Source: Roseovarius spongiae (GTDB lineage Bacteria; Pseudomonadota; Alphaproteobacteria; Rhodobacterales; Rhodobacteraceae). From it: a stretch of 64,000 nucleotides of DNA. A program made the position numbers and the translations under genes. This document shows, piece by piece, positions 31,233 to 47,472 of the stretch (position 1 is its first letter; each line of letters begins with the position of its first letter). Below the pieces are notes generated by a model, which saw only the letters and a program-made list of their open reading frames with translations, made no database searches and was not told the DNA's origin. The DNA lies in the NCBI RefSeq assembly GCF_003651245.1, contig NZ_RAPE01000005.1, positions 62,001 through 126,000 on the forward strand, in the 5' to 3' direction.

Positions 31233-32429
31233 TCACCCCGGCGACATCCCCCTGAGCCGCTCGGAGCGGCGGCGCAGCAGTTCCACCGTGGTCAGGAGCG
31301 CGATCGAGATGCCCACGAGGATCGTCGCCACCGCGAGGATCGTCGGGCTGATCTGTTCGCGCAAGCCCGTGAACATCTGCCACGGCAGCGTCTTCTGCCC
31401 GGCGGAGCCGACGAAGAGCACGACCACCACCTCATCGAAACTGGTGATGAAGGCGAACAGCCCGCCCGAGATCACGCCCGGCAGGATCAGCGGCATCTGC
31501 ACGCGGAAGAAGGTCGTGACCGGGTTCGCCCCCATGTTCGCCGCCGCGCGCGTCAGCGAGCGGTCGAAACCGACCAGCGTGGCGGTGACCGTGATGATGA
31601 CAAACGGAATCCCCAGCACCGCGTGGGCGAGGACCACGCCCCAGTAGGTGCCCTGCAGACCCAGCCGCGAGTAGAAGAAATACATCCCCGCCGCCGAGAT
31701 GATGAGCGGCACGATCATCGGCGAGATCAGGATCGCCATGATCGCCCGGCGGAACGGGACGTGCGGTTGGCTGAGGCCGATTGCGGCGAGCGTGCCGAAG
31801 CTCACCGACAAGATCGTCGCCACCGGCGCGATGCGCACCGAGTTCCACAGCGCCTGCTGCCAGTCCGGGTTGTTGAAGAAATCGCGGTAATGCTTGAACG
31901 AATACCCTTCGGGATCGAAGCGCAGCATTTCCGGCGTGAAGGTAAAGAAATTCTCGGCGTTGAACGACAGCGGCATGACCACCACGATGGGTGCGATCAG
32001 AAAGAAGAAGATCACCCCGCAGATCACGCGGAACGTGTAATACCAGAGCACCTGCCCCGAGGTGAGATAGGGCACCAGTTTCGCCCGGTAGCGATTGAAC
32101 CCGACCCAGTAGGCGAACCAGCCGAAGAACCATCCCGCCAGCCCCCCGACGACGAGGCCCGGCACGCCGCCCAGCAGCATACCCGCGACGGCGAATAACG
32201 CGATCGAGCCCCAGCGCCCCGCCTTCTCCTGCCCGGTTCCCAGGACATCGACCAGCACGAAGGCCAGGACCGCGAGGATGACCGCCCCGCCCAGAAGCCC
32301 CATGAGGGTCGATCCGTTGGCGGCGCCGACGAAGACCCCGAAGAACGCGCCGGCGGCGGCCACCACGGGCACATAGAACCCTGCCGGCTTCCTGCCCGTT
32401 TCGGTGATGACGATATCGCTTGCAACCAT
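31233..32429 (-). CDS. ABC transporter permease, PotC type, with N-terminal membrane extension
   Basis: 398 residues, about 120 more than usual PotC. Residues ~17-108 hold some four extra hydrophobic segments (FYVPVVAAAGAFFGVFVGAA; ILAVLAFVLVDVL; GSIALFAVAGMLLGG) before the ordinary first helix at ~128-153. The binding-protein-dependent permease domain follows, with the EAA loop DRSLTRAAANMGANPVTTFF. Last gene of the leftward importer operon, five bases after the other permease. Polyamine/opine-class substrate is inferred from family only. Confidence 0.88.
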   Translation of the reverse strand: MVASDIVITETGRKPAGFYVPVVAAAGAFFGVFVGAANGSTLMGLLGGAVILAVLAFVLVDVLGTGQEKAGRWGSIALFAVAGMLLGGVPGLVVGGLAGWFFGWFAYWVGFNRYRAKLVPYLTSGQVLWYYTFRVICGVIFFFLIAPIVVVMPLSFNAENFFTFTPEMLRFDPEGYSFKHYRDFFNNPDWQQALWNSVRIAPVATILSVSFGTLAAIGLSQPHVPFRRAIMAILISPMIVPLIISAAGMYFFYSRLGLQGTYWGVVLAHAVLGIPFVIITVTATLVGFDRSLTRAAANMGANPVTTFFRVQMPLILPGVISGGLFAFITSFDEVVVVLFVGSAGQKTLPWQMFTGLREQISPTILAVATILVGISIALLTTVELLRRRSERLRGMSPG

Positions 32430-32434
32430 GAGTC

Positions 32435-34177
32435 CTATCCCAGCTTCACGTTGTCGATGCCCACGATCTTGTCATAGGCCCAGTAGAGGATCAGCACGAC
32501 CGCCAGCAGGATCGTGCCCAGCGCCGCCGCGAGACCCCAGTTGAGCGAGGACGAGATGTGATAGGCGATCCGGTTCGAGATGAACGTGCCGGTGGTGCCG
32601 CCGACGATCTCGGGGGTGATATAGTAGCCGATCGACAGGATGAAGACGAGGATCGACCCCGCCCCGATGCCCGGCACCGATTGCGGGAAATAGACCCGCC
32701 AGAACGCCGTCCAGTTGGTCGCGCCAAGGCTTTTCGCCGCGCGCAGGTAGGAGGGCGGGATGGTCTGCATCACCGAATACATCGGCAGGATCATGAACGG
32801 CAGCAGGATATGCGTCATCGCGACGATGGTGCCGAACTGGTTGTTGATCATGATCAATCGGGCGGAATCGTCCACGAGGCCCAGCCAGACCAACACGTCG
32901 TTTATCACGCCCTGCTGTTGCAGCATCACCTTCCAGGCGCTGGTCCGCACCAGCAGCGATGTCCAGAACGGCAAGAGCACGAGGATCATCAGCAGGTTCG
33001 CCGTGCGCATCGGCAGATTGGCGAGAATCCAGGCCACCGGGTAGCCCAGCAGGATACAGCTTCCGGTGATGACCAGGCTCATGAACAGCGTGCGCTTGAG
33101 CAGAAGCCAGTAGATGCGTTCCTTCTCATCGCGGAACTGCGGGCCGTCGGGCGTCTTTTCCATGTCGACGGCGTTGAGGAAATAGCCGCTGGTATAGCTG
33201 GGGCTGTAGATCTGGATGGTCTGCCAGTTATCCGTGTCGCCCCAATCCTCGTCGATGTCGAGGAAAGCCTGCCGGAAATCGAGCGGCGGCATGTCCGCCA
33301 TCACCGGCTGCGCCGCCCGCAACTCCGCCGCGCCCGGGCCAGAGTAATCTTCCAGCGCGGAGATCGAGTCGGGGTCCCGGAGGTCTTCGCTGAGCGCGAT
33401 CTTGACCGCCTCCCAGGGCTCTTCCTCGGCGACGACATCGCCGTCATCGATGGCGGTAAAGATCGCGAAGGCGGTGTAGGCGCGCGTGGCGCGCGGGAGC
33501 AGCGCGGAGATTGCGGCGGCGGGCGCGAAACCGATATCGCCGGAATAGCTGTGGCCGCTGAGCTCCGCCATCCGCTCGCGCTGCGCGTCAAGCAGCGCGG
33601 CATCCTTCTCCCCGCCCTCCGGGCCGCTCATCAGCGCGAACCAGAACGCCGCGTCCTCCCAGGTCTCGTTCAAATCCTCGAGCGCGTCGATCCGGTCCTC
33701 GCCGATATCATCAAGCTTGCGCCCCGATGAACGGAACAGCGACGAAATGCCGGTTTCCTCGTAGTTGAGCCGGGTGCCGAGCTTGGTGTGCTCCTTGGCC
33801 TCGGCGGCAAGGAACATATCGTAATAGAGCGCCTCGAACACGGTCTCGTCGGGAACCGGATCCTGGCTCGCGTCCCAGTTCCCAAGCGCTGCGGTGGTGC
33901 GCGGCAGCGTGGTCGATACGATCTGGTTCTCGACCGAGCGGAACAGCATGTCCGCGATCGGCGCTATGAAGGTCAGCAGCACGAACAGCAGCAGCGGCGC
34001 GATCAGCAGCAGGGCGCGCATCTTCTGCATCCGCAGCGCCCGGTTCAGGCTGCGCTTGAGCGGGGTGCCATCGGCGGCAAGCACCTTTTCGGGTCTGGCC
34101 GCCTGGTCGGCGGCACGGAGCGCGTTATCCGGTGTCGGGCCCTCGATCTTGTCGGGGTCTGTCGCAGCGTCGCTCAT
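32435..34177 (-). CDS. ABC transporter permease, PotB type, with large extracytoplasmic insert
   Basis: 580 residues, roughly twice E. coli PotB. Helix 1 spans about 54-76, then ~280 hydrophilic, acidic residues (77-358) precede helix 2, and the rest is a normal permease with the EAA loop SYLRAAKSLGATNWTAFWRV. The insert is placed outside the cytoplasm by topology. It shows helical stretches (DDIGEDRIDALEDLNETWED) but no domain I recognise. The insert is in frame, with the same codon use as the rest, so it is not a sequencing fusion. Could bind ligand or the receptor protein. Confidence 0.88.
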   Translation of the reverse strand: MSDAATDPDKIEGPTPDNALRAADQAARPEKVLAADGTPLKRSLNRALRMQKMRALLLIAPLLLFVLLTFIAPIADMLFRSVENQIVSTTLPRTTAALGNWDASQDPVPDETVFEALYYDMFLAAEAKEHTKLGTRLNYEETGISSLFRSSGRKLDDIGEDRIDALEDLNETWEDAAFWFALMSGPEGGEKDAALLDAQRERMAELSGHSYSGDIGFAPAAAISALLPRATRAYTAFAIFTAIDDGDVVAEEEPWEAVKIALSEDLRDPDSISALEDYSGPGAAELRAAQPVMADMPPLDFRQAFLDIDEDWGDTDNWQTIQIYSPSYTSGYFLNAVDMEKTPDGPQFRDEKERIYWLLLKRTLFMSLVITGSCILLGYPVAWILANLPMRTANLLMILVLLPFWTSLLVRTSAWKVMLQQQGVINDVLVWLGLVDDSARLIMINNQFGTIVAMTHILLPFMILPMYSVMQTIPPSYLRAAKSLGATNWTAFWRVYFPQSVPGIGAGSILVFILSIGYYITPEIVGGTTGTFISNRIAYHISSSLNWGLAAALGTILLAVVLILYWAYDKIVGIDNVKLG

Positions 34178-34179
34178 GT

Positions 34180-34467
34180 TCAGGTGCCCTCGACCAGGAT
34201 GATTGTGCTTGTCGCGGTGCGCCGCCTAATGTCGGCCACCTTCTGATATTCGGGGTCGTTATAGGCGGCGCGCGCCGCCTCATAGCTGGGGAATTCGATC
34301 ACGACATGGCGCTCGTTCGTGCTTCCTTCGGCGACCTCGGCCTGCCCGCCGCGCACGACAAAGCGGCCCCCCAGCCCCTCGAGGATCGGCGTGTCCTTTT
34401 CGACGTATTCGCGATACGCCTCCGGATCGTTCACCGTGATATGGCCGATGAGATAGCCCTTGGGCAT
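34180..34467 (-). CDS. DUF1330 family protein
   Basis: 95 residues from ATG 34467 (GGGAGGGAG ahead). Small ferredoxin-like alpha-beta barrel fold: PKGYLIGHITVNDPEAYREY, then RFVVRGGQAEVAEG, ERHVVIEFPSYEAARAAYND, the DUF1330 pattern. No activity is established for the family. It lies between the binding protein and permease genes of an importer operon, which suggests a catabolic role on the imported compound. Confidence 0.88.
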   Translation of the reverse strand: MPKGYLIGHITVNDPEAYREYVEKDTPILEGLGGRFVVRGGQAEVAEGSTNERHVVIEFPSYEAARAAYNDPEYQKVADIRRRTATSTIILVEGT

Positions 34468-34563
34468 GTCGCTCCCTCCCCGTTTCGGGTGGCGCGGCCC
34501 GCCTTGGACGGGCCGCCCCCTGCCATCTGTGTGACCGCGCACGGGGCGCGGTCACCGCCCGTC

Positions 34564-35673
34564 TTACTTGGCGAGCCACGCCTGGAACTTGGCGTCGATG
34601 TCATCGCGGTAATCGGCCCAGAACTCGTAGTTGTAGAGGAACGTGTTCTTGGCGTTCGCCGGATCGGTCGGCATGTGCGGTCCCATCTCGATGCCGAGAT
34701 CGGCATGCTTGCCCACCAACGGGGCCGAAGAGTGCCGCGCCGGACCGTAGCTGATGTATTTCGCCTGATCCGCCAGACGCTGGGTGTCCGTCGCGAACAT
34801 GATGAAGTCAAGCGCGCGCGCCAGGCGATCCTCGGGCAGACCGCTCGGGATGATCCAGCCGTCAAGGTCGAACACCTGCGCGTCCCACATCATCGCGACG
34901 GGCTGTTTCTGCTCTTCGATCACGCTGAACAGACGTCCATTGTAGGTCGAGCCCATGAAGACCTCGCCATCGGCCAGAAGCTGCGGCGTGTCCGCGCCTG
35001 CCGACCACCAGATCACATCGTCCTTGATCGTGTCGAGCTTGGCGAGCGCCCGCTCCTGGCCCTCTTCGGTGCCGAGGACGTCATAGACCTCGTCCTTGGC
35101 GACGCCATCGCAGAGAAGCGCCCATTCCATGTTGTTGATCGGGCGCTTTTCGAGGCTGCGCTTGCCCGGGTAGGTCTCGGTATCGAACACGTCGCAGATA
35201 TCGTCCGGCGCGCCTGCGCCCTCGGGGACCATGTCGGTGCGATAGCCAAAGGTCGTCGAGTAGACGATCTGCGGGATGAAGCAGTCACTGACCAGCAAGT
35301 CGCCGAAGTCGTCCTCGGCGGAAGAACCGTCATCGCCCTCGGCGAGCATCTCGTCGGGGTCGATCTCCATCGCGAGACCTTCGTCGCAGAGGCGGATCGC
35401 GTCGGATGCGACCACGTCGACGACGTCCCACGTGATGTTGCCCGCCTCGTTCATGGCGCGCAGCTTGGCCACCGCCTCGTTCGAGCTCTCGTCCCAGACG
35501 ATCTCGACCTCGGGGTGCATCTCCTTGTAGGGGTCGGCATAGGCCTTGGTCTGGCTGGCCTGGTAGGCGCCGCCCCAGGACACCAGCGTCAGCGAATCCG
35601 CCATTTCGGCATGCGCCATGCCGGCGGCGACCGTGAGGGCCGTCGTGGTCATCAATGTCTTGGTAAGTTTCAT
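34564..35673 (-). CDS. ABC transporter substrate-binding protein, PotD/F type
   Basis: 369 residues from ATG 35673. Signal peptide MKLTKTLMTTTALTVAAGMA with cleavage expected after AHA. The mature protein starts SLTLVSWGGAYQASQTKAYA, typical of the spermidine/putrescine-opine binding family (solute-binding type 8). Contains five or more cysteines or acidic ligand patches that do not identify the ligand. Second gene of the importer operon, after the ATPase. Confidence 0.9.
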   Translation of the reverse strand: MKLTKTLMTTTALTVAAGMAHAEMADSLTLVSWGGAYQASQTKAYADPYKEMHPEVEIVWDESSNEAVAKLRAMNEAGNITWDVVDVVASDAIRLCDEGLAMEIDPDEMLAEGDDGSSAEDDFGDLLVSDCFIPQIVYSTTFGYRTDMVPEGAGAPDDICDVFDTETYPGKRSLEKRPINNMEWALLCDGVAKDEVYDVLGTEEGQERALAKLDTIKDDVIWWSAGADTPQLLADGEVFMGSTYNGRLFSVIEEQKQPVAMMWDAQVFDLDGWIIPSGLPEDRLARALDFIMFATDTQRLADQAKYISYGPARHSSAPLVGKHADLGIEMGPHMPTDPANAKNTFLYNYEFWADYRDDIDAKFQAWLAK

Positions 35674-35784
35674 TACATTCTCCCTAGTTATACCCGTTAA
35701 TTGCGGCGGTGGGTCCAGCCACGGGCAAGACGCGCGGACCCTCGCATTCATCGGGTCCCGAAGGACCGCGACATTCGTATTCCG

Positions 35785-36885
35785 TCATGCGTCAAGCGCG
35801 CGGCAGTCTTCGGGCAGCCAGCCGATCTCGATCTGCTCGCCCGGCTGCATGCGTCGCTGGTCGGGCGCATTCCGGGTCTTGACGATGAAATCGTCGTTAT
35901 CGCCCACCCGCAGCCGCGTGCGAAAGATGTCGCCCATGTAGATGAACTCGAGCACCTCGGCCTTGATCGTATGCGCGCCCGGTTGCAGACGGTTCTTGTC
36001 TACCTCCACCCGCTCGGGGCGGATCGACACGCGGGTGCGCGCCCCGACGTCGCTGACGTTGATCGGCTTGGCGTCGATGACGGCGCCGCCGTCCAGCTCG
36101 ACCAGCGCGACGCTGTCCTTGATCTCCTTGATCGTGCCCAGCATCGTGTTGTTCTCGCCGATGAACTGGGCTACGAAACTGTTTTCGGGCTCTTCATAAA
36201 GCGCGTCGGGCGGCGCGATCTGCTGAATGCGGCCATCGTCGAACACCGCCACGCGATCGGACATGGTGAGCGCCTCGGTCTGGTCATGCGTGACATAGAC
36301 CGTGGTGATCCCGAGGTTATGCGCAAGATCGGTGATCTCGAACTGCATCTTCTCGCGCAGTTGCTTGTCCAGCGCGCCGAGCGGTTCGTCCATCAGCACA
36401 AGCTCGGGCTCGAACACCAGCGCACGCGCCAGCGCGACCCGCTGCTGCTGCCCGCCGGACAGCTGCGCGGGACGGCGGCCGCCGAAATCGCCCATCTCGA
36501 CCATCTCGAGCGCGCGCTTGACCTTCTTCTCGCGGTCCGCCTTGCCGATCTTGCGCACCTCGAGCGGGAAGCTCAGGTTTTCCGCGATCGTCATGTGCGG
36601 AAACAGCGCATAGTTCTGGAACACCATGCCAATGCCGCGCTTGTGGGGGGGGATGTTGTTGATCGACGTCCCGCCCAGGCGGATATCGCCATGCGTGGCC
36701 GTCTCGAACCCGGCGAGCATCATCAGGCAGGTCGTCTTGCCGGATCCCGAGGGGCCGAGCATCGTCAGGAATTCGCCGCGGGGAACAGACAGGTTCAGGT
36801 CTTTGACGACCAATGTTTCCCCGTCATAGCTTTTTTGCACACGTTCAAATTCGACGAACGCGTCATCCGTCTGTTTTTCAGCCAA
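35785..36885 (-). CDS. ABC transporter ATP-binding protein, PotA type
   Basis: 366 residues. Walker A GPSGSGKTTC, Q-loop FQNYALFPHMTIAEN, signature LSGGQQQRVALARAL, Walker B ELVLMDEPLGALD, H-loop YVTHDQTEALTMSD; C-terminal TOBE domain (VSIRPERVEVDK). Powers the importer encoded downstream on the same strand. First gene of the operon; its upstream region carries a striking nested inverted repeat (36952-37027). Confidence 0.93.
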   Translation of the reverse strand: MAEKQTDDAFVEFERVQKSYDGETLVVKDLNLSVPRGEFLTMLGPSGSGKTTCLMMLAGFETATHGDIRLGGTSINNIPPHKRGIGMVFQNYALFPHMTIAENLSFPLEVRKIGKADREKKVKRALEMVEMGDFGGRRPAQLSGGQQQRVALARALVFEPELVLMDEPLGALDKQLREKMQFEITDLAHNLGITTVYVTHDQTEALTMSDRVAVFDDGRIQQIAPPDALYEEPENSFVAQFIGENNTMLGTIKEIKDSVALVELDGGAVIDAKPINVSDVGARTRVSIRPERVEVDKNRLQPGAHTIKAEVLEFIYMGDIFRTRLRVGDNDDFIVKTRNAPDQRRMQPGEQIEIGWLPEDCRALDA

Positions 36886-37043: not shown

Positions 37044-38414
37044 TCAGCCGAGGATCTTGCCGACTGCGTCGGCCGTTTTCGCGACCACCTCGTCGGCCTC
37101 TTCGCGGGTGAGGCAGAAAGGCGGCGCGAACCCGAGAATGTCGCCCTGCGGCATCGCCCGCCCGATCACGCCCGAATCCGCCAGCGCCCCGGCTACCTGC
37201 GCGCCGATCTTTTCCGAAGCGTCGAACAGGATCCGCCCGTCGCGGTCGCGCACGAATTCGACGGCGCAGAGCATGCCTTCGCCCCGGATGTCCCCGACAT
37301 GCGGGTGGTCACCCAACGCGTCCCGCATCGCCTTGTTGAGATAGGCGCCGGTCTCGCGGTTGTTCTCGATCAGGTTCAGTTCGTCCAGCAACTTGAGATT
37401 GGCCACCCCCGCCGCCGCGCCGATGGGATGCGCGGAGTAGGTCCAGCCGTGCCCGATCACTCCGTTCTCGTCCGTGCCGTCCTCGAGCACCTTCCACATG
37501 CGCTCCGACACGATGCTGCCGGACAGCGGCGCGTAGGCCGAGGTCAACCCCTTGGCGATGGTCATGATGTCCGGCTTCATGCCGTAGTAGTCCGAGCCCA
37601 TCATGCTGCCCAGCCGGCCGAAACCCGTCACCACCTCGTCCGCGATCAAGAGGATGTCGTGCTTGTCCAGCACCTTCTGGATCTCGGTCCAGTAGCCGGC
37701 GGGCGGCGGCACGATTCCCCCGGTGCCGAGCACCGGCTCGCCGATGAAGGCGGCGATGGTGTCCGCGCCCTCGCGCGCGATCAGCTCCTCGAGGCTGGCC
37801 ACGCATTGCGCGACGAACTGCTCCTCGCTCTGGTCCAGATCGTCGCGGCGGAAATAATAGGGCGCGTCCGTGTGCAACACCTGGGCCAGCGGCAGGTCGA
37901 ACTTCTTGTGAAACAGCTCCAACCCGGTCAGCGACCCGGTCACCAGCCCCGAGCCGTGATAGCCGCGCCAGCGCGAGATGATCTTCTTCTTCTCCGGGCG
38001 GCCCAGGATGTTGTTGTAATACCAGACCAGCTTGACGTTGGTTTCGTTCGCGTCCGAACCGCCCAGCCCGAAATAGACCTTCGACATATGGGCCGGAGAG
38101 CGGTCGAGGATCATCTTGGACAGCGTGATGCTCGCCTCGGTCCCGTGGCCCACATAGGCGTGGTAATAGGCCAGTTCATGCGCCTGTTTCGCGATCGCCT
38201 CGGCGATCTCGGTGCGGCCATAGCCGACGTTCACGCAGTAAAGCCCGGCGAACGCGTCGAGATGCTTCTTGCCGTTGCGGTCCTCGATATGGCAGCCCTG
38301 CGCGCCGGTGATGATGCGGCTCTGCTGCTCGCCCCGCGCGAATTGCGCGAGATGCGTGGAGGGATGAAAGAAGTTCTCGCGATCCCATTCGGCGAGTTGA
38401 TCGTTGCGCAGCAT
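37044..38414 (-). CDS. Class III aminotransferase (omega-amino acid/DoeD-like)
   Basis: 456 residues. PLP fold I, subgroup II: FGLGGSDANETNVKLVWYYN, RWRGYHGSGLVTGSLTG, EPVLGTGGIVPPPAGYW, LLIADEVVTGFGRLG, and the Schiff-base Lys in MTIAKGLTSAYAPLSG. Uses pyruvate or 2-oxoglutarate as acceptor for omega-amino donors. Next to an Lrp/AsnC gene and a creatinase-fold hydrolase, it could be the DoeD-type 2,4-diaminobutyrate transaminase of ectoine catabolism; other omega-amines are equally possible. An Lrp-like operator lies 89 bases before the start. Confidence 0.88.
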   Translation of the reverse strand: MLRNDQLAEWDRENFFHPSTHLAQFARGEQQSRIITGAQGCHIEDRNGKKHLDAFAGLYCVNVGYGRTEIAEAIAKQAHELAYYHAYVGHGTEASITLSKMILDRSPAHMSKVYFGLGGSDANETNVKLVWYYNNILGRPEKKKIISRWRGYHGSGLVTGSLTGLELFHKKFDLPLAQVLHTDAPYYFRRDDLDQSEEQFVAQCVASLEELIAREGADTIAAFIGEPVLGTGGIVPPPAGYWTEIQKVLDKHDILLIADEVVTGFGRLGSMMGSDYYGMKPDIMTIAKGLTSAYAPLSGSIVSERMWKVLEDGTDENGVIGHGWTYSAHPIGAAAGVANLKLLDELNLIENNRETGAYLNKAMRDALGDHPHVGDIRGEGMLCAVEFVRDRDGRILFDASEKIGAQVAGALADSGVIGRAMPQGDILGFAPPFCLTREEADEVVAKTADAVGKILG

Positions 38415-39121: not shown

Positions 39122-40300
39122 ATGAAAGACCTGCCCTTTTCGCAATCCGAGTTCGACCGCCGGATCAAACGCACCCGCGCCGCGATGGAGGCGCGCGGGA
39201 TCGAGTTGATGTTCATCACCGATCCGAGCAACCAGCACTGGCTGACCGCCTATGACGGCTGGTCCTTCTACGTCCACCAGGGGGTGCTCTTGTCTCTTGA
39301 CGGCCCGCCTCTCTGGTGGGGGCGCTACATGGACATGCTGGGCGGGCGGCGCACCTGCTGGATGGAAGACGCGCAGATCCTCGGTTACGGCGACCACTAC
39401 GTGCAAAGCACCGAACATCACCCGATGCAGGACCTGGCGGCGCATATCCGCGACATGGGGCTGGGGGCCGCACGGATCGGCGTCGAGATGGAGAATTACT
39501 ATTACTCCGCCAAGGCGCACGCGGTGCTCATCGACGAACTGCCCGACGCGGACATCGTCGACGCGACCGCGCTGGTCAACTGGCAGCGATTGGTGAAATC
39601 GGACGAGGAAATCGCCTTTCTGCGTCGCGCCGCGCGGATCTCCGACAAGGTAGTCCAGACGGCCATCGACCGCGCCGAACCCGGTGTGCGCAAGAACGAT
39701 CTGGTGGCCGATATCCTGCACGCGGGCATCACGGGGGTGGACGAGGATTGGGGCGACTACCCCGCGATCCTGCCGCTGACGCCTTCGGGCGAGGACGCGA
39801 CCGCCGCGCACCTCACCTGGAACGGCAGGCTGATGCAGACCGGCGAGGCGACGTTCTTCGAACTCTCGGGCGTCTTTCGCCGCTATCACGCGCCGCTCTG
39901 CCGGACGGTGTTCCTCGGAACACCGCCCGACGACATGAAGCGCGCGGAGGCGGCGCAGATCGAGGGGATCGAGGCCGGATTGGAGGCCGCGCGCGCCGGC
40001 AACCGCACCTGCGACATCGCCAACGCCTTCATGGAGGTGCTGGGGCGCTACGGGATCGAACGGTCGGGCCGGATGGGCTATTCCATCGGCGTCAGCTACC
40101 CGCCCGACTGGGGCGAACGCACCGCATCGATCCGCAGCGAGGACGAAACCGTGCTCAAGCCGGGAATGGCGTTCCACTTCATGCCCGCGCTCTGGATGGA
40201 GTCCTGGGGACTGGAGACGACCGAGACGATCCTCATCAGGCCGGACGGGCCGGCCGAACCGCTCTGCACCGCGCCGCGCAAGCTCTTCGTGAAAGACTGA
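39122..40300 (+). CDS. M24/creatinase-fold hydrolase, ectoine hydrolase (DoeA/EutD)-like
   Basis: 392 residues with the creatinase N-domain (RIKRTRAAMEARGIELMFIT, DPSNQHWLTAYDGWSFYVHQ) and pita-bread C-domain. The usual M24 metal ligands are not complete, as in creatinase-like members. The TAYDGWSFYVHQ segment and length fit the ectoine hydrolase group that opens the ectoine ring to N-acetyl-diaminobutyrate. The partner deacetylase DoeB is not in the window, so the assignment is tentative; a proline-dipeptidase-like role is the alternative. Followed by a long terminator stem. Confidence 0.75.
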   Translation: MKDLPFSQSEFDRRIKRTRAAMEARGIELMFITDPSNQHWLTAYDGWSFYVHQGVLLSLDGPPLWWGRYMDMLGGRRTCWMEDAQILGYGDHYVQSTEHHPMQDLAAHIRDMGLGAARIGVEMENYYYSAKAHAVLIDELPDADIVDATALVNWQRLVKSDEEIAFLRRAARISDKVVQTAIDRAEPGVRKNDLVADILHAGITGVDEDWGDYPAILPLTPSGEDATAAHLTWNGRLMQTGEATFFELSGVFRRYHAPLCRTVFLGTPPDDMKRAEAAQIEGIEAGLEAARAGNRTCDIANAFMEVLGRYGIERSGRMGYSIGVSYPPDWGERTASIRSEDETVLKPGMAFHFMPALWMESWGLETTETILIRPDGPAEPLCTAPRKLFVKD

Positions 40301-43401: not shown

Positions 43402-44487
43402 ATGAAATCCACTATCCTGACCACCACCGCAGCACTGGCGCTGATCGCCACAGCCGCGGCAGCCGAAGAGGTGCGCGTCTATAACTGGTCCGACTACATA
43501 GACGAATCACTGCTCGAGAAGTTCGAGAATGAAACGGGTATCGAACTGACCTATGACGTGTTCGACAGCAACGAGGTGCTGGAAACGAAAATGCTGGCCG
43601 GCGGCTCGGGCTACGACGTCGTGGTGCCCACCGGCACCTTCCTGCAACGCCAGATTTCGGCTGGCGCGTTCCAGAAGCTCGACATGTCGAAGCTGCCCAA
43701 CGAAGAGAACATGTGGGAGCTGATCAAGAAGCGGACCGCGCAATACGATCCCGGCAACGAATACTCGATCAACTACATGTGGGGCACCACCGGGCTCGGC
43801 ATCAACGTGGACAAGGTCCGCGAGGCGCTGGGCGAGGACGCGCCGGTCAACTCGCTCGACCTGATCTTCAAGCCCGAGAACATGGAGAAGCTCGCCGATT
43901 GCGGCGTGCATGTGCTCGACGCGCCCGCCGAGACGATTCCGATGGCGCTGAAGTTCCTCGGCGAGGATCCCGACAGCCATGATCCCGACGTGATCGCCAA
44001 GGTCGAAGACGTCTACGCCGCCGTGCGTCCCTACATCCAGAAGTTCCACAACAGCGAATACATCAACGCGCTGGCCAACGGCGACATCTGCGTCGCGGTC
44101 GGCTGGTCGGGCGACGTTCTCCAGGCGCGCGACCGCGCCGTAGAGGCCGGCAACGGCGTCGAAATCGCCTATTACGCGCCCAAGGAAGGCGCGCAGATGT
44201 GGTTCGACCAGATGGCGATCCCGGTCGACGCGCCAAACCCGGACGCCGCGCACAAGTTCCTGAACTTCATCATGGACCCCGAGAACGCCGCGGCCGCGTC
44301 GAATTACGTCTATTACGCCAACGGCAACAAGGCGAGCCAGGAGTATCTGAACGAGGACGTGATCAACGATCCGGCGATCTACCCGGACGAGGAGACGCTG
44401 AACAATCTCTTCACCACCACACCCTACGAGCCGAAGGTTCAGCGCGTCGTGACCCGGCTCTGGACCAAGATCAAGTCGGGCACCTGA
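43402..44487 (+). CDS. potF: Polyamine-type ABC transporter substrate-binding protein (PotF-like)
   Basis: 361 residues. Signal peptide ending ATAAAAEE; mature start VRVYNWSDYIDESLLEKFEN, the hallmark of PotF/PotD (the NWSDYI segment binds putrescine). Further blocks YDVVVPTGTFLQRQISAGAF and INYMWGTTGLGINV match PotF. GGGAGAAAAAC precedes the ATG. First gene of a rightward importer operon; a terminator hairpin after it should give more binding protein than membrane parts. Confidence 0.92.
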   Translation: MKSTILTTTAALALIATAAAAEEVRVYNWSDYIDESLLEKFENETGIELTYDVFDSNEVLETKMLAGGSGYDVVVPTGTFLQRQISAGAFQKLDMSKLPNEENMWELIKKRTAQYDPGNEYSINYMWGTTGLGINVDKVREALGEDAPVNSLDLIFKPENMEKLADCGVHVLDAPAETIPMALKFLGEDPDSHDPDVIAKVEDVYAAVRPYIQKFHNSEYINALANGDICVAVGWSGDVLQARDRAVEAGNGVEIAYYAPKEGAQMWFDQMAIPVDAPNPDAAHKFLNFIMDPENAAAASNYVYYANGNKASQEYLNEDVINDPAIYPDEETLNNLFTTTPYEPKVQRVVTRLWTKIKSGT

Positions 44488-44504
44488 CGACCCGATGAAA
44501 CCAT

Positions 44505-44536
44505 ACCCGCGCAGCAAACGCTGCGCGGGTTTTTTG
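44505..44536 (+). terminator. Partial terminator inside the importer operon
   Basis: 11-bp stem ACCCGCGCAGC / GCTGCGCGGGT, loop AAAC, then six to seven T. Lies between potF-like and potG-like genes. Confidence 0.85.
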
Positions 44537-44556
44537 ATCGCAGGAGGGGGACCAGC

Positions 44557-45687
44557 GTGGGTCAGACAACATTCGAGCCGTGGAACGACCCAGAGGTCGA
44601 GCCGCTCATTCAATTCAGGAACGTGACCAAGAATTTCGGCGATTTCACCGCCATCGACGATCAGTCCTTCGACATCTACGCCAAGGAATTCTTCGCCCTG
44701 CTGGGGCCCTCGGGCTGCGGCAAGACGACGATGATGCGCATGCTTGCCGGGTTCGAGAGCCCGAGCTCGGGCACCATCCTGCTGGGCGGGCAGGACATCG
44801 CGCCGATCCCGCCGAACAAGCGGGCGGTGAACATGATGTTCCAGTCCTACGCGCTTTTCCCGCATCTGTCCGTCTGGGACAATATCGCCTTTGGCCTGAA
44901 GCGCGACCGCAAACCGGCGGATGAGATCGCCGAACGGGTCGGACAGATGTTGAAGCTGACCCGGCTGGAGAAGTTCGCGAAGCGCAAGCCGCACCAGATC
45001 TCGGGTGGCCAGCGCCAGCGCGTCGCGCTTGCCCGCAGTCTCGCCAAGGCGCCCAAGCTGTTGCTGCTCGACGAACCGCTCGGCGCGCTCGACGCCAAGC
45101 TGCGCCAGGACACCCAGTTCGAGCTGATGGACATCCAGGAAAAGACCGGCACGACCTTCGTGATCGTCACCCACGACCAGGAAGAGGCGATGACCGTGGC
45201 CAGCCGCGTGGCGGTGATGGATCACGGCCGGATCATCCAGGCCGACACGCCCGCGAATATCTACGAGATGCCCAATTCCGTCTATGTCGCGGATTTCATC
45301 GGCGAGGTGACGATCATCGAGGGCCGCGCGACCCGCACCCGCAACGGCGACGCCTATGAGGTCGCCTTCGCCGAGGGCCAGCCGCCCCTGCGCGCGCAAT
45401 CCGACCGCTCCTTCGGCATCGGTCAGGCGTGTCACCTTGCGATTCGCCCCGAGAAGGTGAGGATCACCGCCGAGAAGCCCGAGGACGCCGCCAACGCGGT
45501 GCAGGGCGCGATCCTCGACATCGCTTATCTGGGAAACCTGTCGACCTATATCGTCGAACTTCCCAGCGGGCATCTCATCAAGGCGCAGACCGCCAACACC
45601 CAACGCCTGTCACGGCGCAGCTTCACATGGGAGGACACCGTCTGGCTCAGCTGGACCGAAACGGCCGGCGTCCTGCTGGAGGGCTGA
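44557..45687 (+). CDS. potG: Polyamine-type ABC transporter ATP-binding protein (PotG-like)
   Basis: 376 residues from GTG 44557 with AGGAGGGGG ahead. Walker A GPSGCGKTTMMR, FQSYALFPHLSVWDN, signature ISGGQRQRVALARSL, Walker B LLLLDEPLGALD, TOBE region LAIRPEKVRITAEK. Couples ATP hydrolysis to transport by the two permeases downstream. Three bases separate it from the next gene. Confidence 0.93.
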   Translation: MGQTTFEPWNDPEVEPLIQFRNVTKNFGDFTAIDDQSFDIYAKEFFALLGPSGCGKTTMMRMLAGFESPSSGTILLGGQDIAPIPPNKRAVNMMFQSYALFPHLSVWDNIAFGLKRDRKPADEIAERVGQMLKLTRLEKFAKRKPHQISGGQRQRVALARSLAKAPKLLLLDEPLGALDAKLRQDTQFELMDIQEKTGTTFVIVTHDQEEAMTVASRVAVMDHGRIIQADTPANIYEMPNSVYVADFIGEVTIIEGRATRTRNGDAYEVAFAEGQPPLRAQSDRSFGIGQACHLAIRPEKVRITAEKPEDAANAVQGAILDIAYLGNLSTYIVELPSGHLIKAQTANTQRLSRRSFTWEDTVWLSWTETAGVLLEG

Positions 45688-45690
45688 GCC

Positions 45691-46581
45691 ATGCGTCGTT
45701 TCGCCCTCATCGCCGTTCCCTATCTCTGGCTGCTGGCGCTGTTCCTTGTGCCGTTCCTCATCGTGCTCAAGATCAGCCTGAGCGACATCGCGATGGCGAT
45801 CCCGCCCTATACGCCCACGCTCGACCTGTCGGCCGGCTGGGAGGGGATCAAGAGCTTCTTCGCCGCCCTCGATCTCGAGAATTTCGAATTCCTGACCACC
45901 GACGACCTCTACTGGAAGGCCTATCTGTCCTCGCTTCAGATCGCCTTTATCGCGACCATCGCAACGCTGATCGTCGGCTATCCGATCGCCTACGGCATGG
46001 CCAACGCGCCCGATCACTGGCGCCCCACCCTCATGATGCTGGTGATCCTGCCGTTCTGGACCAGCTTCCTGATCCGGGTCTACGCTTGGGTCGGCATCCT
46101 CAGCAGCGAAGGTTATCTCAACCAGATCCTGCTCTGGTCCGGGGTGATCAATGAGCCGCTGACAATCCTCAACACCAATGTCGCGGTCTATATCGGCATC
46201 GTCTACACCTACCTGCCCTTCATGATCCTGCCGATCTATTCCGCGCTCGAGCGGATGGACGAATCGCTTCTCGAGGCCGCCGAGGACCTCGGGTGCAGCC
46301 GCATCAGCGCCTTCTGGCTGGTGACGATCCCGCTGTCGAAGAACGGCATTATCGCCGGGTGTTTCCTGGTCTTCATCCCCACCATCGGCGAATTCGTCAT
46401 CCCGTCGCTTCTGGGCGGCTCTAAGACGCTGATGATCGGCAAGGTGCTCTGGGAGGAATTCTTCAACAACCGCGACTGGCCGGTGGCGAGCGCGGTGGCG
46501 GTGATCCTGCTGCTGATCCTGATCATTCCGATCATCCTGTTCCAGCGCAACGAGCAGAAACAGCGGGAGGCCGAAGGATGA
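45691..46581 (+). CDS. potH: Polyamine-type ABC transporter permease (PotH-like)
   Basis: 296 residues, six predicted helices, of normal length (unlike the permease at 32435). EAA loop DESLLEAAEDLGCSRISAFW in the cytoplasmic loop that contacts the ATPase. Starts three bases after potG. Its last codons overlap a possible 25-codon reading frame. Confidence 0.92.
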   Translation: MRRFALIAVPYLWLLALFLVPFLIVLKISLSDIAMAIPPYTPTLDLSAGWEGIKSFFAALDLENFEFLTTDDLYWKAYLSSLQIAFIATIATLIVGYPIAYGMANAPDHWRPTLMMLVILPFWTSFLIRVYAWVGILSSEGYLNQILLWSGVINEPLTILNTNVAVYIGIVYTYLPFMILPIYSALERMDESLLEAAEDLGCSRISAFWLVTIPLSKNGIIAGCFLVFIPTIGEFVIPSLLGGSKTLMIGKVLWEEFFNNRDWPVASAVAVILLLILIIPIILFQRNEQKQREAEG

Positions 46582-46655
46582 GCAGCCTGAAAAATTCGCG
46601 AATTTTTTCTATCCTGAGAATTTTCGCGAGAATACCTGGCGACGGAGGGGTGTGA
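46578..46655 (+). CDS. Possible 25-codon coupled mini-ORF between potH and potI
   Basis: ATG 46578 overlaps the potH stop (ATGA), GGGAGG lies seven bases before it, and its TGA ends one base before the potI ATG. The peptide begins MSSLKNSRIFSILRIFARIP, amphipathic and basic. The DNA is far more AT-rich than the surroundings and includes an 18-base palindrome AAAAATTCGCGAATTTTT. It may be a real small protein, a coupling leader, or merely a hairpin spacer. Confidence 0.35.
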   Translation: MSSLKNSRIFSILRIFARIPGDGGV

Positions 46656-46656
46656 C

Positions 46657-47472
46657 ATGAGACGCATGACCTGGTTCAACGCCACTTCCCTCACGCTCGG
46701 CTTTGCGTTCCTTTACCTGCCGATGCTGATCCTCATCATCTACAGCTTCAACGATTCCAAGCTGGTGACGGTCTGGGCCGGGTTCTCGACCCGGTGGTAC
46801 GGCGAATTGTTCCGCAACGAGGCCTTCCTCGACGCCGCATGGGTGACGCTTCGGGTCGCGGTGATCTCGTCCACCATCGCCACGGCGCTTGGTACGATGG
46901 CCGCGCTCGTGCTGGTGCGCGCGGGGCGCTTTGCCGGGAGGACGCTGTTTTCCGGCATGATCTACGCGCCGCTGGTGATGCCCGAGGTGATCACCGGGTT
47001 GTCGCTCCTGCTGCTCTTCATCGGGATCGGGCTGGATCGGGGGATCTTCACGATCATCCTCGCGCATACCACCTTTTCGATGTGCTACGTGTCTGTTGTG
47101 GTGTCCTCGCGGCTGGTGAGTTTCGACCGCTCGCTCGAGGAGGCCGCGCTCGACCTCGGCTGCTCGCCCGCGCAGGCGTTCCGCCTCGTCACGTTGCCGA
47201 TCATCGCGCCGGCGGTGATCTCGGGCTGGCTGCTGGCCTTCACGCTCTCGCTCGACGATCTGGTGATCGCGTCCTTCACCGCCGGGCCGTCCTCGACCAC
47301 GCTGCCGATCAAGATCTGGTCGTCGATCCGCCTTGGTCTCAGTCCCGAGATCAACGCGCTCTCGACGCTGCTCATCTCATTCGTGGCGGTCGGGGTGATC
47401 GCCGCGTCGCTGACCAGCAAGCGCGCCAGCCTCAGGCGGCAGGCGGAAGAACGGGCCGCCGTGGCCGCATGA
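46657..47472 (+). CDS. potI: Polyamine-type ABC transporter permease (PotI-like)
   Basis: 271 residues with six helices; opens SLTLGFAFLYLPMLILIIYS after ten residues. EAA loop DRSLEEAALDLGCSPAQAFR. GGAGGGG precedes the ATG. Overlaps the FAD oxidoreductase gene start (ATGA). Normal length for PotC/PotI. Confidence 0.92.
   Translation: MRRMTWFNATSLTLGFAFLYLPMLILIIYSFNDSKLVTVWAGFSTRWYGELFRNEAFLDAAWVTLRVAVISSTIATALGTMAALVLVRAGRFAGRTLFSGMIYAPLVMPEVITGLSLLLLFIGIGLDRGIFTIILAHTTFSMCYVSVVVSSRLVSFDRSLEEAALDLGCSPAQAFRLVTLPIIAPAVISGWLLAFTLSLDDLVIASFTAGPSSTTLPIKIWSSIRLGLSPEINALSTLLISFVAVGVIAASLTSKRASLRRQAEERAAVAA

What the first reader, a model, noticed from the sequence alone, without database searches (positions are those of the whole stretch)
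32435..34177. Importer permease with a ~280-residue extracytoplasmic insert
The PotB-type permease has helix 1 at about 54-76 and helix 2 only from about 359. The ~280 residues between are acidic and hydrophilic and fall outside the cytoplasm by topology; ordinary PotB/PotH (see the second importer at 45691) has a short loop there. The operon already encodes a separate binding protein, so the insert could be a second ligand or docking domain. I could not match it to a known domain.
Basis: partly seen in the sequence, partly recalled or inferred. Interest (0 to 1): 0.55.

Follow-up and report, generated by a model that had tools for sequence, protein, structure and literature searches.

The report
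Helical periplasmic domain in importer permease
A membrane channel protein of a marine bacterial nutrient importer carries a large, apparently well-folded, all-helical domain outside the inner membrane; one part of it is old and widespread, the other is a plug-in module that some relatives have and others lack, and its job is probably to guide or tune the docking of the nutrient-capturing partner.

Summary
Between TM1 (aa 54-76) and TM2 (from about 359) lie about 280 acidic residues, outside the cytoplasm, without a further membrane helix. Ten other PotB-type permeases of this genome have 25-51 residues there. AlphaFold2 models residues 80-330 as one all-alpha domain (pLDDT 95.7, pTM 0.92). 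Pfam, NCBIfam, PDB sequence search and Foldseek gave no convincing match.

The insert is two-layered. A base insert (TM1-TM2 spacing 141-155) also occurs in Rhizobium, Vibrio and other proteobacterial relatives. Nested inside it is a block of about 85-160 residues, which a profile search found only in these permeases. Of 149 genera sampled in the family, 126 have a homologue: 55 with the nested block, 71 with the base alone. Both forms occur in one genus at the same locus; trees need repeated change, most simply one gain and later losses. The block is under purifying selection, yet its absence leaves almost no trace in binding protein, ATPase or partner permease.

Best reading: the base insert is a docking/coupling platform beside the docked binding protein, an analogue, not a homologue, of the MalF P2 domain; the nested block is an optional tuning module. 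Docking is inferred, not shown.

The parts
32435..34177 (-). PotB-type permease gene, 580 aa
   Evidence: ORF; PF00528 at aa 378-569, E 2.8e-15; best NCBIfam model PotB, 167 bits against a cut-off of 348
33950..34018 (-). TM1 of the permease (aa 54-76)
   Evidence: hydropathy peak 56-74
33704..33949 (-). base insert, first part (aa 77-158), the most conserved part of the insert, with the invariant stretch H-T-x-L-G-x-R-L-N-Y-E-x-x-G
   Evidence: invariant columns of A1 and A2; also in short-form homologues
33284..33703 (-). nested block (aa 159-298), absent from base-form homologues
   Evidence: profile A3 found only in these permeases in 289 genomes of the class
33116..33283 (-). base insert, second part (aa 299-354)
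32438..33115 (-). membrane core TM2-TM6 (aa 355-580)
   Evidence: PF00528; aligns with E. coli PotB 8y5f_B
31233..32429 (-). partner permease, PotC-type, 398 aa, with about 130 extra N-terminal residues holding at least three hydrophobic helices
34180..34542 (-). small DUF1330 protein between binding protein and permease, detected in only part of the related operons
   Evidence: PF07045 E 1e-33; found in 36 of 80 loci L021-L100 at E 1e-15
34564..35751 (-). periplasmic binding protein (start possibly at 35673)
   Evidence: SBP_bac_8 E 2.7e-58; PDB relatives are named for spermidine/putrescine, GABA, polyamine or opines
35785..36885 (-). ATPase, PotA-type
   Evidence: TIGR01187 potA 380.2 bits, cut-off 355.6
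37044..38414 (-). class III aminotransferase upstream in the same direction
   Evidence: NF005684, 829.9 bits; synteny in part of the relatives

Best explanation
The insert is a periplasmic all-alpha domain of a type I ABC importer permease, built in two layers. The base layer (aa 77-158 plus 299-354) is a regular part of a large PotB-like subfamily. It most likely stands beside the docked binding protein, holds its C-lobe and passes the 'loaded partner present' signal through TM1 and TM2. It would thus work like the MalF P2 domain, from an unrelated fold. The nested block (aa 159-298) is an optional module grown inside a loop of the base domain; it extends or tunes that platform and can be absent without breaking the importer. 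Shown: position, conservation, purifying selection, two discrete size classes, presence or absence within one genus at one locus. Predicted: the fold. Inferred: contact with the binding protein and the coupling role.
For: Insert alone is modelled at pLDDT 95.7, pTM 0.92, helices only. The base layer is more conserved than the nested block: mean share of the commonest residue 0.76 (77-158), 0.56 (159-298), 0.66 (299-355), 0.93 (356-580); median dN/dS 0.08, 0.13, 0.11, 0.05 for TM1 plus first base part, block, second base part, core (23 pairs, 21 usable in two of the regions). TM1-TM2 spacing falls in steps: 25-51 in paralogues, 141-155 base form, 237-304 long form. Four same-genus genomes carry the base form in the same gene order as the long form (L153-L156). 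The insert's exit (query 355) aligns with PotB L60, reported to touch the PotD C-lobe. [quoted passage not shown]
Against: No co-fold or contact evidence exists. AF2 placed the membrane part poorly (full-length pTM 0.58), so the domain's orientation to the membrane is unknown. In nine base-form loci (L153-L161), 2 of 212 conserved columns of the binding-protein fragment differ (one a gap-rich N-terminal column, the other E to D), 0 of 253 in the ATPase and 0 of 188 in the partner permease; five control clades of long forms gave 0-6, 0-4 and 0-13. So the nested block imposes no visible constraint on its partners; the test says nothing on the base layer. E. coli PotB, 285 aa in all, docks PotD without such a domain.
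Confidence: 0.5

Rival explanations
1. The insert binds a ligand of its own (the substrate or a regulator) and gates the importer, a second receptor besides the binding protein.
For: Large domain predicted to fold, with its own invariant residues, among them P228, P254, W255, G280; regulatory domains are known on type I importers, usually cytoplasmic (general knowledge).
Against: No convincing similarity to any known domain or solved fold; the nested block is absent from relatives that keep the same binding protein and, in the four same-genus loci, the aminotransferase. No pocket analysis was possible.
Confidence: 0.12
2. The domain mainly serves assembly or stability: it packs against the partner permease or the lipid surface and has no specific role in docking.
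For: The nested block can be absent with almost no imprint on partners; the partner permease also has extra membrane helices in most of the same operons, fitting a general elaboration of the complex.
Against: The base is conserved across much of the phylum; presence of the partner's extra helices does not clearly track the nested block (4 independent pairs on starred branches, median p 1; underpowered).
Confidence: 0.25
3. The nested block is a near-neutral decoration held only because it folds.
For: Presence changes at least 5 times on the companion tree, 3 forced by starred branches; highest divergence of the regions measured.
Against: Median dN/dS 0.13, maximum 0.32 in 21 usable pairs; 5 invariant columns in 53 sequences; kept in 55 of 126 family genera with a homologue.
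Confidence: 0.13

Closest known systems
E. coli PotB of PotD-PotABC (8y5f, 8y5i; PMC11414716, passages seen)
   Same: membrane core alignable over 353-572 with E 1.7e-41; also an importer with ATPase, binding protein and two permeases
   Different: E. coli PotB is 285 aa and aligns from residue 58, so it has no room for such an insert; this protein has about 280 residues there
MalF P2 domain of the maltose importer MalFGK2 (PMC3150292, passages seen)
   Same: a large periplasmic region in one of the two permeases, in contact with the binding protein; by recalled MalF topology it sits between the helices equivalent to TM1 and TM2
   Different: P2 is described with antiparallel beta-sheets; this domain is predicted all-alpha, so it is not the same domain
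Base-form permeases, measured in Rhizobium (L101) and Vibrio (L103) plasmid records; matches to both ends of the protein also in Azospirillum, Bradyrhizobium, Caballeronia and others
   Same: same base insert and membrane core; the Rhizobium gene also lies with an ATPase, a binding protein and a second permease
   Different: no nested block; TM1-TM2 spacing 143 and 145 in the two measured
Second importer of the window, 43402-47472, ordered binding protein, ATPase, permease, permease by reading of the frames
   Same: permease core similar to this one (35.5% identity)
   Different: spacing 51 and no insert; its gene order, not this operon's, matches R. pomeroyi potFGHI (SPO3469-3466) as tabled in PMC9038784 (passage)

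Membership tests
Type I ABC importer permease (BPD_transp_1, PF00528) | score above Pfam's curated cut-off | tested here: met
   57 bits against 26.4, aa 378-569
Type I ABC importer permease (BPD_transp_1, PF00528) | EAA-type coupling loop between TM4 and TM5 (motif recalled) | tested here: inconclusive
   aa 479-507 read R-A-A-x-x-x-G and fit the loop's place, with R in place of E (sequence); no profile of the motif was run
PotB equivalog (NF007044) | score above NCBI's curated cut-off | tested here: not met
   167.4 bits against 348
MalF P2 domain | beta-sheet-containing fold | tested here: not met
   predicted model of aa 80-330 lists helices and no strand of 3 or more residues; P2 described with antiparallel beta-sheets
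MalF P2 domain | contact with the cognate binding protein | not testable with these tools
   no co-folding available; only an indirect argument from PotB L60
Any known domain model (Pfam, NCBIfam, PHROGs) | match to a domain model in the insert | tested here: not met
   Pfam at E 0.1: 0 families for the window; among 80 members five families, the widest in 3 members (best 0.015), the lowest E 0.0041 in 1 member; NCBIfam 0 at E 0.1; PHROGs best 0.029
Known fold in the PDB | structural match of the insert model | tested here: inconclusive
   Foldseek: 0 matches at E 0.001 or below, best 0.97; VIA-align best Z 3.3 among 996 Foldseek-ranked chains

The most novel reading that the evidence does not exclude
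A previously undescribed all-alpha fold serves as a binding-protein clasp on a PotB-like permease, a second, independent invention of what MalF P2 does; marine Rhodobacterales plug in and drop a further module of about 85-160 residues that retunes capture, perhaps at very low substrate concentrations, so that nature has already made the deletion series at one locus in one genus.
Probability: 0.27. Interest if true: 0.6.

Novelty: new variant of a known kind. Interest (0 to 1): 0.42.

Why it matters
The one large periplasmic docking domain on a permease of this importer type that I can name is MalF P2 (recall, supported). A second, structurally unrelated one, present in many Proteobacteria and without a domain model in the libraries searched, would show whether such platforms are a general way to tune type I importers. 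Presence and absence of the nested module within one genus and one operon make its role directly testable by comparing natural pairs. It also shows that the PotB-like label hides at least two size classes with an unannotated domain in 126 of 149 genera of one bacterial family.

Tried and rejected
Sequence search of the insert against the PDB: single sequence best E 0.97, profile best E 0.15; treated as chance. Foldseek and VIA rows to 14-3-3, RasGAP and others rejected: query TM-scores of 0.11-0.17 in the 50 rows shown, Z at most 3.3.

Polyamine identity of the substrate: rejected as unproven. R. pomeroyi potFGHI is shown to serve cadaverine, putrescine and spermidine (PMC10130141, passages and table rows), but its gene order fits the other importer of the window; the binding protein here is also related to GABA and opine receptors by name.

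Horizontal replacement as the sole cause of base forms: not favoured for seven of them, which form one starred clade (99) inside a starred clade of 11 rows (96) that also holds four long forms, on the permease tree without the block's columns; that tree needs 3 changes, 2 forced by starred branches, which could in principle also be two acquisitions. On the companion tree the same seven are not one group. L158 and L161 fall elsewhere on the permease tree, and for them replacement or misplacement stays open (quick method, three long outgroup branches, 66 loci chosen by hand plus the window).

Link between the nested block and the partner permease's extra helices: 85 both, 12 block only, 7 helices only, 10 neither, of 114; no supported correlation.

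Literature: three searches for large periplasmic insertions in such permeases gave one irrelevant paper, one irrelevant paper and none. Any statement that this is not in print rests on these three searches of an open-access library. A search by the PDB codes of the nearest binding-protein structure gave only unrelated papers, so its organism and ligand stay unknown to me. Papers: PMC10130141, PMC9038784, PMC11075332, PMC11414716, PMC3150292, PMC3328499 and PMC7449393 were seen as passages only; PMC11075332, PMC3328499 and PMC7449393 were not used.

Full report
What is there. The ORF is real and reads on the minus strand (34177 to 32435, 580 aa). Its C-terminal part is a type I importer permease core (PF00528), alignable with E. 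coli PotB over 353-572. Between TM1 and TM2 lie about 280 residues with no membrane-helix-like window (maximum 1.0; the six peaks taken as spanning helices score 1.71-2.81, and a minor 1.23 peak lies at 417-435, between TM3 and TM4). The insert is acidic, but so is the mature binding protein (pI 4.1 each), so acidity says little about function. The operon is aminotransferase, ATPase, binding protein, DUF1330 protein, this permease, PotC-type permease.

Is it unusual? In the own genome ten other PotB-type permeases were measured and have TM1-TM2 spacings of 25-51; the target has 284. Among 152 loci of homologues, some of them the same gene fetched twice, the spacing is either 141-152 or 241-304. 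In a survey of 149 genomes of the family, the window's included and one per genus, 126 have a homologue at E 1e-80. All 71 base forms have been measured, 69 and two (L158, L159), at 141-155. Of the 55 long forms, 19 were measured at 237-304 and one is cut off by its contig but shows the block; 34 were read from full-length matches, and one is the window itself (counts). No value falls between 155 and 237. In a sample of 385 genomes of the class, 87 have a match at E 1e-60; by frame length most are of base-form size and a few of ordinary PotB size. In 398 genomes across the phylum 70 match the insert itself, many only at its two ends.

Two layers. In base-form proteins the match to the insert stops at about residue 158 and resumes at about 299. 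The shorter version of the block (proteins of spacing about 240) is homologous to the longer one (hhalign probability 98.7, E 2e-16 over 78 columns; 11 sequences against 53). A profile of the block found nothing outside these permeases in 289 genomes of the class: 6 genomes matched, each within the permease frame. So it is not a domain shuffled in from a source that these searches can see.

Structure. AlphaFold2 on 80 sequences models residues 80-330 with mean pLDDT 95.7 and pTM 0.92, helices and no strand of three or more residues. In the full-length model the same region is confident (ten-residue means 82-97 over residues 91-320) but the membrane part is not, and pTM is 0.58. The full model's leading PDB matches are PotB, PotC and other type I importer permeases. 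The insert alone matches nothing in the PDB at E 0.001, with VIA Z at most 3.3 among 996 chains. No fold is thereby shown to be new, since libraries of predicted cellular structures were not available.

History. Of 23 other genomes of the genus, 17 carry the full insert, 4 the base form (G002, G003, G009, G014), 1 a partial match in an assembly of 410 contigs and 1 none. The four base forms sit in the same neighbourhood as the window: aminotransferase, ATPase, binding protein, permease, permease, then ilvE-like, MarR and response-regulator genes; DUF1330 was detected in three of the four (L153-L156). On a tree of ATPase, binding protein and PotC-type permease (114 rows: 119 loci held all three, 113 were left after removing identical binding proteins, plus the window) the state changes at least 5 times, 3 forced by starred branches. 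The Rhizobium, Vibrio and Pseudorhodobacter rows and five other early-branching rows are base form, which favours gain within the Rhodobacterales group followed by losses. On the permease's own tree, built without the block's columns, 3 changes suffice, 2 forced by starred branches; seven base forms form one starred clade inside a starred clade that holds four long forms. One gain with one or more losses is the simplest reading; transfer of the block, or replacement of the gene, is not excluded, least of all for L158 and L161.

Constraint. Median dN/dS is 0.08 (TM1 and first base part), 0.13 (nested block), 0.11 (second base part) and 0.05 (core), in 23 pairs of close homologues, of which two dropped out in two of the regions for saturated dS. 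The block is thus kept by selection where present. Yet in nine loci without it, companion proteins show almost no diagnostic change: binding protein 2 of 212 conserved columns, one a gap-rich N-terminal column and the other E to D; ATPase 0 of 253; PotC-type permease 0 of 188; five control clades of long forms show 0-6, 0-4 and 0-13. This counts against the nested block being an essential docking surface.

Mechanism. In the PotD-PotABC structures PotD docks on both permeases, and its C-lobe touches PotB L60 among others (PMC11414716, passages). In the alignment, PotB 58 pairs with residue 353 here, so L60 falls on residue 355, where the insert re-enters the membrane. The base domain should therefore stand next to the docked binding protein. 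The MalF P2 region is the precedent: residues 91-271 of MalF, contacting MalE (PMC3150292, passages). I commit to a docking and coupling platform for the base layer (about 0.5) and an optional tuning module for the nested block. The contact and the coupling are inferences.

Substrate. Unknown. The nearest solved relatives of the binding protein are named spermidine/putrescine-binding (E 3.5e-62), a GABA sensor, a binding protein labelled polyamine, and opine receptors; the class III aminotransferase points to an amine or omega-amino acid. This is inference.

Noticed in passing
31233-32429: The PotC-type partner has about 130 extra N-terminal residues with at least three additional hydrophobic helices; present in 92 of 114 operons examined and absent from the Rhizobium, Vibrio and Pseudorhodobacter loci.
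   Followed up: partly
L096: A record titled Enemella evansiae, an actinobacterium by taxonomy, holds this operon and its neighbours at 67-86% identity, which suggests a mislabelled or contaminated assembly.
   Followed up: partly
L074: Maritalea mobilis, of the Hyphomicrobiales, carries the long form at 70% identity, possibly by transfer.
   Followed up: partly
43402-47472: A second importer (binding protein, ATPase, two permeases by reading of the frames), with an oxidoreductase-like frame behind it and an aminotransferase before it, has the gene order tabled for the R. pomeroyi polyamine importer potFGHI.
   Followed up: partly
34180-34542: A DUF1330 gene between binding protein and permease was detected in 36 of 80 related loci (L021-L100) at E 1e-15, so it is unlikely to be a core part of the importer; a short protein may be missed at that cut-off.
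   Followed up: partly
39122-40300: Ectoine-hydrolase-like gene (DoeA model 564.7 bits, under its cut-off of 613) next to the operon; a relative lies within the fetched flanks of 19 of 80 loci (L021-L100).
   Followed up: no
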